DNA of 64,000 bases from NCBI GenBank assembly GCA_017643305.1, contig JAEPNQ010000001.1, positions 62,001-126,000 on the forward strand. Direction: 5' to 3'. The DNA is from Marinibacterium sp. (GTDB lineage Bacteria > Pseudomonadota > Alphaproteobacteria > Rhodobacterales > Rhodobacteraceae). Of the stretch, positions 38,260-46,157 are shown in pieces (position 1 is the first letter of the stretch; every line of letters begins with the position of its first letter). Under the pieces are notes generated by a model. That model saw nothing but the letters and a program-made list of their open reading frames with translations, did not search any database and had not been told where the DNA came from. The translations under genes were made by a program, and so were the position numbers.

Positions 38260-38511
38260 ATGGATATTCGAAGCATCGTTCAGGCGAAGCTGGCCGCAGC
38301 GGTTGCTGCGCATTCACCAATGCCGTTTCCGGACGACATTGACGACGACGATGAACTGGACGTGTTCGGTCTAGATTCACTGGCTTTCATGGAACTGCTG
38401 ACGGCGATCGAAAAGGACGTTGGATACATCCCACGCGCTATCCTGGAAGGCGACGTTTACCCCGAAACTTTTGGTGAGTTTGTCTCAGCCTACGACAGCA
38501 CCGGGTCATGA
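38260..38511 (+). CDS. Free-standing acyl carrier protein
   Basis: The 83-residue acidic protein has the phosphopantetheine site S40 in VFGLDSLAFMELL. GGGGAGG lies 5 nt before ATG 38260, which decides against an in-frame upstream ATG. Its stop overlaps the start of the ligase gene (ATGA), so carrier and ligase are translationally coupled. I infer that it receives an acyl or aryl group from the ligase and hands it to the synthase. No phosphopantetheinyl transferase is nearby. Confidence 0.93.
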   Translation: MDIRSIVQAKLAAAVAAHSPMPFPDDIDDDDELDVFGLDSLAFMELLTAIEKDVGYIPRAILEGDVYPETFGEFVSAYDSTGS

Positions 38512-40061
38512 TGCGGGCCGCTGACCTTCCGCTTCACTACAACATCAGCGCGATCCTTGAACACAACCTGACGGATCACGCGGACAAGCCAGCTATTCTC
38601 AGCGACACCGCTTCGCTGACGTTTCGCGAGGTGTCCGATCAGGTCAACCGGACTGGCAATGCGCTGCTTCGCGCCGGGGTCCGGTTTGGCGATTGCGTGG
38701 CGATCCTTTGTCCTGACCGCCCCGAATGGGTGACGACGTTTTTTGCCACGGCTAAGATCGGCGGCATCGCCTTGGGCATGAACACGCTGCTGAAGACCGA
38801 GGAATATGACTACATCCTCGGCGACGCGCGTGTGTCGGTGCTGGTTGTGCACGAAAACCTGCTTGACGCGATCGAGCCGGTTCTGGCCAATCACCGCACG
38901 CTGAACAAGGTCGTCGTGATCGAGGACGCGCCGCACAAAGGCTACACCCCCTTCACCGATTGGATCGCGGATGAGGACACGGTGCTGGAACCCGCCAGAA
39001 CCCATCGAGACGATTTCTGTTCGCTGCACTATTCCAGTGGTACCACCGGCATGCCCAAAGGCGTTCTGCACGCCCACAAAGACTATCCGCTTATCGCGCA
39101 GCTGTCAGGCGTTGACCTATTCGGCATGACCGAGGACGACCGCACCTTCGCCGTGGCCAAGCTATTTTTCGTCTACGGCATCGGCGCGAACCTAATTTTC
39201 CCATGGTATGTTGGGGCAAGCTGTGTCCTTTTCGCCGGGCCACCGCGTCAGGCGGCGGCTGTGCTCAAGACCATCGAGACCTACAAGCCTACCATCTTTG
39301 TCAGCGTGCCCACCGTCTATGGCGCGATCCTGTCGCTGCCGAAGTTCAATGAACGCTTTGACGTCAGCTCTGTCCGGCTGTGCATATCCGCAGGCGAACC
39401 TTTGCCCGAACGGGTCTGGCACGGCTGGGCGGATGTGACAGGTCTGGAAATCCTGGACACCATCGGGTGCACCGAAACCTACCACACCTTCATGGCCAAC
39501 AGACCGGGTGAGATCCGCCCGGGCAGCAGCGGCAAGCCGATTGACGGCTACCAGGTGCGACTGGTCGATGATGATGGCCACGACGTGCCGCAGGGCGAGG
39601 TCGGGAACCTTATGGTAAAGGGGGAAACGTCGGCGCTTTTCTACCTGCACCAGTACGAGAAAAGCCGTCATACATTTCGCGGTGAATGGCTGTTCACCGG
39701 CGATCAGTACCGAATGGATGAGGACGGCTACTACTGGCATCAGGGCCGCGCCGACGACATGCTGAAGGTCGGGGGCCTGTGGGTATCGCCGACCGAGATC
39801 GAAGACGCGCTGGCTGGGCATGAGGCCGTCGCGGAATGCGCCGTTGTCGGATATTACGACGATACTGGTCTGTTGAAACCGCGGGCGTTTGTTTGCCTGC
39901 GCAAAGGTGTTACGCCGTCTGATGCGGTGCAGGGGGACCTGCTGAAACTCTGCGCCAAAACGCTGGACGCGCACAAGCGGCCCCGCTGGCTGGAGTTCAT
40001 CGACAACTTGCCGCGCACGGCGACGGGCAAGTTGCAGCGCTTCAAACTGCGGGAACACTGA
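38508..40061 (+). CDS. AMP-forming acyl/aryl ligase of the benzoate-CoA ligase family
   Basis: The 517-residue ANL-superfamily enzyme has P-loop YSSGTTGMPKGVLHAHKD (from Y175), AKLFFVYGIGANLIFPWY, which is characteristic of benzoate-CoA-ligase relatives, the DTIGCTETYHTF adenine-binding motif, the hinge GRADDMLKVGG and the catalytic lysine K508 (TATGKLQRF). It activates a carboxylate as an adenylate and transfers it to CoA or, given coupling to the ACP gene, to the ACP. The family resemblance suggests an aromatic or similar small acid. It lies 3 bp before the PKS gene. Confidence 0.9.
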   Translation: MMRAADLPLHYNISAILEHNLTDHADKPAILSDTASLTFREVSDQVNRTGNALLRAGVRFGDCVAILCPDRPEWVTTFFATAKIGGIALGMNTLLKTEEYDYILGDARVSVLVVHENLLDAIEPVLANHRTLNKVVVIEDAPHKGYTPFTDWIADEDTVLEPARTHRDDFCSLHYSSGTTGMPKGVLHAHKDYPLIAQLSGVDLFGMTEDDRTFAVAKLFFVYGIGANLIFPWYVGASCVLFAGPPRQAAAVLKTIETYKPTIFVSVPTVYGAILSLPKFNERFDVSSVRLCISAGEPLPERVWHGWADVTGLEILDTIGCTETYHTFMANRPGEIRPGSSGKPIDGYQVRLVDDDGHDVPQGEVGNLMVKGETSALFYLHQYEKSRHTFRGEWLFTGDQYRMDEDGYYWHQGRADDMLKVGGLWVSPTEIEDALAGHEAVAECAVVGYYDDTGLLKPRAFVCLRKGVTPSDAVQGDLLKLCAKTLDAHKRPRWLEFIDNLPRTATGKLQRFKLREH

Positions 40062-46000: not shown

Positions 46001-46157
46001 GGCGAGCATGCTTGCCGGCTGGCAGGACCGCACCTCGGCAGGCTTTGCACAGTGCGAGTTTCCGGGGGATCACTTCTATGTTAACCCGGAACGCGATGCG
46101 GTCATCGCGGCCATTCTCGACGCCCTCAAAGACACGCTGTGCGATCAAGAATGCTGA
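40065..46157 (+). CDS. Single-module type I polyketide synthase KS-AT-DH-KR-ACP-TE
   Basis: The 2030-residue synthase starts with a short coiled-coil (LEEATAEIARLQAELAGQ). Domains and catalytic residues: KS about 36-465 (C210 in DTACSSSS, H345 in ETHGTGTPLG, H383 in NVGHLDSA); AT about 570-865 (S653 in GHSIGEY; HAFH at 752-755, a malonyl-CoA signature); DH about 925-1200 (H949 in HRVFGSVVFP, D1120); KR about 1250-1610 (TGGVGALG at 1424, K1526, S1550, Y1563; a late Asp in AAGVLAD suggests B-type); ACP about 1690-1760 (S1727 in GVDSLSAVE); TE about 1780-2025 (S1867 in FGHSMGA, D1975, H2003). No enoylreductase. The TE is of the external RifR/GrsT kind (FPFAGGGASAFKPW). The layout equals that of iterative 6-MSA-type synthases plus a TE. 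I infer iterative extension of a starter supplied by the ligase and free ACP. The product is unknown. Confidence 0.95.
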   Translation: MDDSTRSGDTAPLTLEEATAEIARLQAELAGQKAVREPIAIIGMGCRFPGGVRSPDAFWELLHSGRDVLGGIPGDRWDVDAFYDPEVTVPGKMYVRAGYYLDQIDQFDPQFFGLSPREAESLDPQQRMVMEVSWETLEHAGIAPDTLKGGKTGVFVGQYWDDYSSQRIYSTDNREIDRYVQLSALRGLTAGRICHVLDSHGPAIQLDTACSSSSLAVHLACQSLRSGESDLALAGGVSLVLAPEHLIGICQMTALSPDGRCKTFDARADGFGQGEGCGMIALKRLNDARAEGDTVLAVIQGSAANHDGQARTVTTPSGPAQRAMLQEALDDAGLAPHQVDLVETHGTGTPLGDPIEVSAIARVLGKDRTKPLYLGAVKTNVGHLDSAAGIVGVMKVVLSLQHNTIPQNLNYADPNRHIPWGDWPLEVPTGNIPWDGAGRFAGISAFGMSGTNVHLIVGDAPEPEAAAARAPVGDGPHLLPLSAKAAGALTDLAERYADVIEGDPNIDLAQLCCSAATTRSHFSHRAAFPASTPEALLQSLRDFAADNPVADTAAGVTGRRAPKLAFLFTGQGAQFVGMGKALYDTHPGFRVTMDRCAELVAPHLDQPLLDVMWSGEALHQTAYTQPALFTIEYAVAKLLEDWGVTPDLVLGHSIGEYVAACIAGVFPLEDALRLVAARGRLMQSLPAGGKMVSVAVDEATISAAIAGESLVSIAAVNAPQSVVFSGDGPAVDRVQQGLEAQGVKCTVLKVSHAFHSPMMDPILEEFRAVAAGVTFANPDRTLISNVTGKPWGEAELSADYLVDHLRGAVRFADGIAYAQSKKFQTFVEVGPKPTLLGLGRASVAPGYGAWLPGLQPDREWPTLLDSLRHLYAQGVDIDWQGFYARSTAPRMQLPNYPWRYQRCWTDVVSTGCNGQRLHPLVHRRINNASRSAIFESTLSANDPAYLDDHRVFGSVVFPASAFFEMAMVVAREVFGQREVALTNVAIGHALMLSNNPTTVQMVAKPHGDRYDFEIYSWTAEDQNWVQHTTGTLERRLPSPAAAINVDEELIFFNQPFDIKLLSARFEARGLEYFPRFRAIEAIFKPAETHDDIGTAFARIELPSEAVLPGDSYRLHPVITDASFRIAEAIFADEDLDQIHLPFGISGFSCDHAASGTVWVKATARQQDKTRIVDLELFDETGERVAKVEKLTLRSVPVFSLKRAMSTAVSTSGILNDWLYHFDWEEAEAEQAEPTPGQWLVLRDQGGVADMLIAGMKAAGHGVQVADTAEAAARALGSIDATELVGVVHAWAMDACEAEPDAALLASLGVVKSLVQEKSKIRHWFLTQGAQAVTSDEDVSPWQSQFWGFGRTLQVEHPEHFGGCIDLDTVRDPDALIAEIMGDSPDKEVALRRGTRRAARLMRPEPSMGDHGALELTAEASYLITGGVGALGLQVAQYLAKQGAKHLVLTGRSGVSTDDQRTALHALEDAGVKVDVIAADVSKAGDVERVLAAAPNLRGVVHAAGVLADAMLTQQSPERFARVAGPKVDGAWQLHKQTLDQPLDFFVMFSSVASAIGSPGQSNYASANAFMDGLAHLRRRQGLAATAINWGPWADVGMAASDVVLQRLMKDGWQPMSTSQGCNFIGHLLTARDLAQAAVLPVDWREFATNIPGALGWSTLKHLVPSEQSSPLTGNAAELAAAQVKQATPDQRVELISSYLMERIAQTLRVPAADIDEFAQLSSLGVDSLSAVEIRLWAQGDLDIDLAVEQLFTAPSIRDLAIAIDQLLGGAGPVAVSETPANWIIRPSRRADAQVRLFCFPFAGGGASAFKPWANALPDHFELCVIQMPGREDRLAEPLMTDMSELVTALTQEIASLTDRPFAFFGHSMGAIVAYEVACRLRDTGAGQLSHLFLSARAAPQLQQDGTPLRHLDDEAFIDRLQKVYGAVPEAIRQSTELRDIFLPILRADVALLETHADTRPEPLPCPITALGGANDPAISASMLAGWQDRTSAGFAQCEFPGDHFYVNPERDAVIAAILDALKDTLCDQEC

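What the first reader, a model, noticed from the sequence alone, without database searches (positions are those of the whole stretch)
38260..46157. Compact ACP + benzoate-ligase-like + single-module PKS locus between IS3 sequences
Three tightly packed genes (4-bp overlap, then 3-bp gap) encode a free ACP, a benzoate-CoA-ligase-family adenylating enzyme and a KS-AT-DH-KR-ACP-TE synthase in which all catalytic residues are visible. A truncated IS3 transposase lies about 250 bp to the left and an inactivated IS3 element about 230 bp to the right. The domain order is that of iterative 6-methylsalicylate-type synthases, but here a dedicated starter-loading pair and a fused TE are added. I know of no described Roseobacter pathway with this three-gene layout. 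The predicted product is a partly reduced, possibly cyclised short polyketide on an aryl or acyl starter.
Basis: partly seen in the sequence, partly recalled or inferred. Interest (0 to 1): 0.75.

Follow-up and report, generated by a model that had tools for sequence, protein, structure and literature searches.

The report
Conserved marine aryl-primed polyketide synthase cluster
Three intact neighbouring genes, shared by a scattered set of marine bacteria, probably activate an aromatic acid, hang it on a small carrier protein and extend it with one polyketide synthase; the product is unknown and no described pathway was found to match.

Summary
In detail: intact ACP (38260-38511), benzoate-ligase-like enzyme (38508-40061; 4-bp overlap) and a 2030-aa KS-AT-DH-KR-ACP-TE synthase (40065-46157; 3-bp gap), between remnants of two different IS3 elements. 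The locus is not a local assembly: the same genes, at 73-82% (ligase) and 68-77% (PKS) identity, occur in at least eleven other genomes across Alpha- and Gammaproteobacteria, with catalytic motifs kept and purifying selection on every catalytic domain. They are rare: none in 394 other sampled genomes of the host family. The ligase's closest solved relative is an anthranilate-CoA ligase, but its acid pocket has a signature of its own (V-Y-G-Y-H-T), invariant in the clade and absent from all other relatives examined, so the starter is probably an aromatic acid other than plain benzoate or anthranilate. The fused TE is of the RifR/type II kind, pointing to hydrolytic release. In five related loci a PhzS-like FAD monooxygenase sits beside the genes; here it does not. 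Best reading: an uncharacterised aryl-primed, single-module type I PKS pathway. '6-MSA-type' is not supported; the nearest functional precedent found is fungal FnsA. New variant of a known kind.

The parts
38260..38511 (+). free acyl carrier protein, 83 aa, GLDSL attachment motif
   Evidence: PF00550 27.1 bits; 71-83% identical in 7 related loci, motif kept
38508..40061 (+). benzoate-CoA-ligase-family aryl-activating enzyme, 517 aa; pocket signature V222 Y223 G320 Y325 H326 T327
   Evidence: TIGR02262 508.7 bits, over its cut-off; best PDB match 4WV3 anthranilate-CoA ligase 697 bits against 364 for benzoate-CoA ligase; pocket unique to the clade
40065..46157 (+). type I polyketide synthase, 2030 aa, KS-AT-DH-KR-ACP-TE
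   Evidence: Pfam, motifs in full-length homologues, purifying selection
40161..41444 (+). KS domain (DTACSSSS, HGTGT, NVGH)
41751..42584 (+). AT domain, GHSIGE and HAFH (malonyl-type)
   Evidence: specificity reading from established AT motifs
42810..43664 (+). DH domain, HRVFGSVVFP and HPVITDASFR
44307..44864 (+). KR domain, TGGVGALG, S/Y/N catalytic residues, LAD (LDD in homologues)
45135..45359 (+). internal ACP domain, GVDSL
45435..46124 (+). TE domain of RifR/type II thioesterase kind, GHSMG, D, H
37594..38069 (-). IS3-type transposase remnant (left flank, context only; limits approximate)
   Evidence: PF13683; DNA homology to other copies in the genome from 37594 to about 37955
46390..47641 (-). 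inactivated IS3-type element (right flank, context only; limits approximate)
   Evidence: broken transposase frames; homology to many copies in the genome

Best explanation
A complete small biosynthetic operon. The ligase activates an aromatic carboxylic acid, probably a substituted benzoate rather than plain benzoate or anthranilate, and loads it (by way of AMP or CoA) on the free ACP. The KS takes the aryl group from that ACP, the AT supplies malonyl units, KR and DH process at least one beta-keto group to a double bond, and the RifR-like TE releases an aryl-substituted unsaturated acid by hydrolysis. As there is only one module, more than one extension would need iterative use. In other hosts a PhzS-like FAD monooxygenase next door probably hydroxylates the starter or the product. 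Shown: gene order, domains, catalytic motifs, conservation, selection, TE kind, pocket signature. Inferred: aromatic starter, loading onto the free ACP, number of cycles, the product.
For: Ligase over the curated cut-off of the benzoate-CoA ligase family and nearest to an anthranilate-CoA ligase; the aurachin pathway loads an aryl acid on a free ACP, and RauF/SauE show that one enzyme can both activate and load (PMC10295502). Y228, G327, H333 and I334 line the BadA benzoate cavity (PMC7277991); at the I334 position the clade has T, and at position 332 Y, in every member that covers them, against I and mostly L in other family members. The ACP lies beside the ligase in every related locus whose contig reaches that side, and the 3-bp ligase-PKS gap is kept in 8 loci. 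Catalytic motifs of all six domain types are conserved in the full-length homologues. Non-synonymous change is far rarer than synonymous (DH 0.15 against 0.74, KR 0.14 against 0.73) in each catalytic domain (the printed labels dN and dS are swapped there, pS/pN are right). TE: RifR 150 bits against 28 for the DEBS TE. Two Sfp-like phosphopantetheinyl transferase genes in the genome. Precedent for aryl activation plus KS-AT-DH-KR-ACP-TE: FnsA.
Against: No substrate or product is known. The DH has R where DH domains usually have Q or H, in all homologues, so its activity may be altered. The Sfp-like genes were recognised by profile and motif only. No promoter-like site was found upstream (alphaproteobacterial promoters may not fit the consensus) and an IS remnant ends close to the ACP, so expression in this strain is uncertain. 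The free ACP is a modest match to the general ACP profile and nothing shows directly that the ligase loads it.
Confidence: 0.62

Rival explanations
1. FnsA-like programme: after one reduced and dehydrated extension of a hydroxybenzoate-type starter (a cinnamoyl stage), the synthase adds unreduced malonyl units, giving a chalcone, pyrone or other phenolic polyketide that a FAD monooxygenase hydroxylates.
For: Same set of parts (aryl adenylation, carrier, KS-AT-DH-KR-ACP-TE) as FnsA, which takes p-hydroxybenzoic acid plus four malonyl units. Recurrent aromatic-hydroxylase-type FMO in five loci.
Against: The TE is of the hydrolytic type II kind. No sequence relation to FnsA was tested. The programme cannot be read from sequence.
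Confidence: 0.12
2. Fully reducing iterative use (KR and DH in every round) yields an aryl polyene carboxylic acid, a type I counterpart of the known type II aryl polyene pathways.
For: KR and DH conserved, no ER, hydrolytic-type TE, broad scattered distribution.
Against: No transporter, lipid or glycosyl genes conserved beside it. Iteration is not shown.
Confidence: 0.13
3. The ligase activates a non-aromatic or heteroaromatic acid and the family name misleads.
For: Pocket differs from all benzoate and anthranilate ligases examined.
Against: Over the family cut-off and nearest to an anthranilate ligase.
Confidence: 0.1
4. Non-functional relic stranded between insertion sequences in this strain.
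For: IS remnants on both sides, no promoter-like site, LAD instead of LDD in the KR, FMO not linked here.
Against: Three intact frames with catalytic residues kept; non-synonymous change low against the nearest full homologue.
Confidence: 0.08

Closest known systems
Aurachin loading enzymes AuaEII / AuaE-RauF-SauE with ACP AuaB
   Same: Ligase of the same subfamily (nearest solved structure 4WV3, 697 bits); an aryl acid is put on a free ACP to prime a PKS
   Different: Aurachin uses a type II PKS; the pocket residues differ (T-F-G-F-H-I against V-Y-G-Y-H-T); no separate AuaE-like transferase found here
Fungal naringenin synthase FnsA (A-T-KS-AT-DH-KR-ACP-TE)
   Same: Same functional parts: aryl adenylation, carrier, KS-AT-DH-KR-ACP-TE
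   Different: One fused fungal protein with an NRPS-type A domain; here three bacterial genes, a benzoate-ligase-type enzyme and a RifR-like TE; homology not tested
Bradyrhizobium / Burkholderia ligase-SDR-ACP-PKS clusters (L017, L018)
   Same: Ligase, free ACP-sized protein and a KS-AT-DH-KR-ACP-TE synthase in one operon
   Different: PKS 33-34% identical; shorter ligase annotated as fatty acid-CoA ligase family; extra SDR and alpha/beta hydrolase; PPTase in the Bradyrhizobium locus; product not known to me
6-methylsalicylate-type iterative synthases
   Same: Domain order KS-AT-DH-KR-ACP
   Different: Fused TE, separate aryl starter loading, KS-AT and DH nearest to modular bacterial synthases

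Membership tests
benzoate-CoA ligase family (TIGR02262) | score over curated cut-off | tested here: met
   508.7 against 375.25 bits
benzoate-CoA ligase sensu stricto | benzoate-type pocket (A/Y/G/L/H/I at the BadA positions) | tested here: not met
   V-Y-G-Y-H-T in the clade
AuaEII-type anthranilate-CoA ligase | sequence kinship | tested here: met
   best PDB match, 697 bits
AuaEII-type anthranilate-CoA ligase | pocket T-F-G-F-H-I | tested here: not met
AuaEII-type anthranilate-CoA ligase | activates anthranilate | not testable with these tools
   needs an enzyme assay
cis-AT type I PKS module | KS, AT, KR, DH, ACP with catalytic residues | tested here: met
   DH second motif atypical at one position (R for Q/H)
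6-methylsalicylate-type iterative PKS | domain order KS-AT-DH-KR-ACP | tested here: met
   but the order is shared with ordinary modules
6-methylsalicylate-type iterative PKS | phylogenetic placement with 6-MSAS | tested here: inconclusive
   best scores are CurL, DEBS, CurF; no named 6-MSAS was available to compare
6-methylsalicylate-type iterative PKS | iterative use and aromatic product | not testable with these tools
   needs reconstitution
type II (RifR-like) thioesterase | sequence kinship to type II rather than type I TE | tested here: met
   RifR 150 bits, DEBS TE 28 bits
FnsA-like aryl-primed PKS | aryl acid activation and KS-AT-DH-KR-ACP-TE in one system | tested here: met
   architecture only; aryl specificity inferred
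FnsA-like aryl-primed PKS | sequence homology and phenolic product | not tested
   FnsA sequence not held; product needs experiment

The most novel reading that the evidence does not exclude
A bacterial type I PKS system, spread among marine Proteobacteria, that builds phenylpropanoid- or flavonoid-like phenolics from a benzoic-acid-type starter without a type III PKS: a split bacterial counterpart of FnsA, with a PhzS-like FAD monooxygenase as tailoring enzyme.
Probability: 0.1. Interest if true: 0.78.

Novelty: new variant of a known kind. Interest (0 to 1): 0.52.

Why it matters
It is a compact, three-gene and therefore easily expressed pathway, kept intact in distantly related marine bacteria, for which I found no described product. 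One heterologous expression with a panel of aryl acids would give both the starter specificity of a new pocket type and the programme of a single-module PKS. If it makes phenolics of the FnsA kind it would be a new bacterial route to them.

Tried and rejected
(1) Anthranilate supply from neighbouring kynureninase- and formamidase-like domains (34506-36710): not conserved beside the other loci, only weak kynureninase similarity. (2) The host's own FMO (G000:C110) as the displaced fourth gene: relatives of it occur in 65 other of 390 family genomes and it groups with those, not with the cluster FMOs, so linkage to the pathway is unproven. (3) Composite transposon: the flanking IS are different elements. 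(4) Chloroflexi ligases at 53-60% as further clusters: no ACP or PKS homologue beside them. (5) Other conserved neighbours: none besides the FMO. (6) Literature: no description of the genes found; the AB1 bryozoan-symbiont paper does not mention PKS. (7) A sample of 369 Gammaproteobacteria had no match, which only says the genes are rare there. (8) No structure prediction was run: the sequence matches already fix the folds, and a model would not give the substrate.

Full report
OBSERVATION. The ACP starts at the ATG at 38260, with GGAGG just upstream; its stop overlaps the ligase start by 4 bp, and the ligase stop is 3 bp from the PKS start. Pfam finds one ACP, an AMP-binding enzyme with its C-terminal domain, and KS, AT, DH, KR, ACP and TE in that order in the 2030-aa synthase. 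No frame is interrupted.

CONSERVATION. A scan of 84,980 species genomes with the ligase gave a group at 73-82% identity clearly apart from the next relatives (Chloroflexi at 53-60%, ordinary benzoate ligases at 44% or less). Beside the close ones lie the ACP and the PKS: L020 Rhodobacteraceae, L021 Cellvibrionales, L022 Magnetovibrio, L023 Chromatiales of Bugula neritina, L024 Chromatiales, L026 Rhizobiaceae group (contig starts inside the ligase), L029 Leucothrix and L039 Granulosicoccaceae (contigs end inside the ligase). Searching the order of L039 added three more genomes (L159, L160, L161). The 3-bp ligase-PKS gap recurs in eight loci; the ACP-ligase spacing varies (overlap to 360 bp). 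The genes were absent from 394 other sampled genomes of the host family, from the rest of 385 class genomes and from a sample of 369 Gammaproteobacteria. In a ligase tree the twelve form one fully supported clade apart from the Chloroflexi enzymes; within it the alphaproteobacterial rows and the Cellvibrionales row are unresolved. Rare, scattered presence suggests horizontal transfer; this was not tested against a species tree.

INTEGRITY. In the full-length homologues the KS Cys/His/His, AT GHSIGE and HAFH, DH His and Asp, KR TGGxGxLG and Ser/Tyr/Asn, ACP Ser and TE Ser/Asp/His are kept. L022 has D for G in the DH HxxxGxxxxP motif. The DH Asp motif is D-A-(S/G)-F-R in all, against DAAFQ or DAALQ in CurF and CurK: a constant feature of the clade, not decay of one copy. 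The proportion of non-synonymous differences between the window and L020 is 0.07 (KS), 0.16 (AT), 0.15 (DH), 0.14 (KR), 0.09 (ACP) and 0.22 (TE), against synonymous 0.62-0.75. In that printout the names dN and dS are interchanged by a slip in my script, and synonymous change is near saturation, so only the contrast should be read.

LIGASE. It passes the cut-off of the benzoate-CoA ligase family and among solved structures is nearest to the anthranilate-CoA ligase 4WV3 (697 bits, then 364); that 4WV3 is AuaEII of aurachin biosynthesis is my own knowledge. The review of aurachins describes AuaEII making anthraniloyl-CoA, AuaE moving it to the ACP AuaB, and single enzymes RauF and SauE doing both (PMC10295502). 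Mapped through the alignments, the BadA cavity residues (Y228, G327, H333, I334 named in PMC7277991; A227 and L332 from my own knowledge) correspond to V222, Y223, G320, Y325, H326, T327. V-Y-G-Y-H-T is invariant in every clade member that covers the sites; benzoate-type enzymes have A-Y-G-L-H-I or T-F-G-L-H-I, 4WV3 and two Chloroflexi enzymes T-F-G-F-H-I. The changed, more polar side chains suggest a substituted ring; this is inference.

SYNTHASE. AT motifs read malonyl, KR motifs B-type (LDD in homologues); both readings rest on established motif knowledge. KS-AT resembles modular synthases (CurL 871 bits, DEBS about 864). The TE is nearest to RifR (150 bits) and far from the DEBS TE (28 bits). 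That favours hydrolysis. Two Sfp-like PPTase genes are present.

FOURTH GENE. A FAD monooxygenase lies directly after the PKS in L022 and L026 and upstream of the ACP in L023, L024 and L039. It belongs to the PRK07538 group, nearest solved relative PDB 2rgj/3c96 at 263 bits, which I know as PhzS. It is not near the genes in the window, L020 or L160. The host genome has a 65% relative on another contig, but such genes are common in the family (66 of 390 genomes, the host included) and the host's copy groups with them, while the L023, L024, L026 and L039 copies form a clade and L022 is apart. Some family members lie beside Amidohydro_2 genes, in keeping with work on aromatic acids. So the monooxygenase is a recurrent partner, possibly recruited more than once, and its role here is open.

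COMPARISON. The nearest functional precedent I found is fungal FnsA, A-T-KS-AT-DH-KR-ACP-TE, which takes p-coumaric or p-hydroxybenzoic acid with three or four malonyl units to naringenin (PMC9606254). Clusters with ligase, ACP-sized protein and a KS-AT-DH-KR-ACP-TE synthase in Bradyrhizobium and Burkholderia are architectural parallels at 33-34% PKS identity. The paper library gave no description of the genes. MIBiG and antiSMASH were not available, so 'uncharacterised' means not found here.

VERDICT. Real, intact, conserved and apparently undescribed; of a known general kind (acyl-activating enzyme plus ACP plus single-module PKS) with a new starter pocket. Interest 0.52.

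Noticed in passing
window 34506-36710 (-): One open frame of 734 aa joins an aminotransferase-V (weakly kynureninase-like) part to a putative cyclase / formamidase-like part; an apparent fusion, beside a BKACE-family gene at 36740-37510.
   Followed up: partly
window 32427-34409 (+): One 660-aa frame matches N-acetylglucosamine kinase in its first half and NagA deacetylase in its second half: an apparent NagK-NagA fusion.
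   Followed up: partly
window 27077-32390 (+): Phosphonate catabolism genes in a row: phnW, phosphonoacetate hydrolase (phnA), phosphonoacetaldehyde dehydrogenase and a PbfA-like lyase, with a LysR regulator upstream.
   Followed up: partly
window 15074-15487 (-): Bacterial RNase P RNA, class A.
   Followed up: no
G000:C110, locus L115 586-1428 and 9210-10487: A tryptophan 2,3-dioxygenase-like gene and a PhzS-like monooxygenase lie about 8 kb apart on another contig of the host genome.
   Followed up: partly
L017, L018: Bradyrhizobium and Burkholderia plasmids carry operons of ligase, SDR, ACP-sized protein, KS-AT-DH-KR-ACP-TE synthase and alpha/beta hydrolase (PPTase in L017).
   Followed up: partly
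window 47669-48676 (+) and 53131-54489 (+): Two sizeable open frames (335 and 452 aa) without any Pfam match; the first lies in a stretch of lower G+C (48% at 48-49 kb).
   Followed up: no
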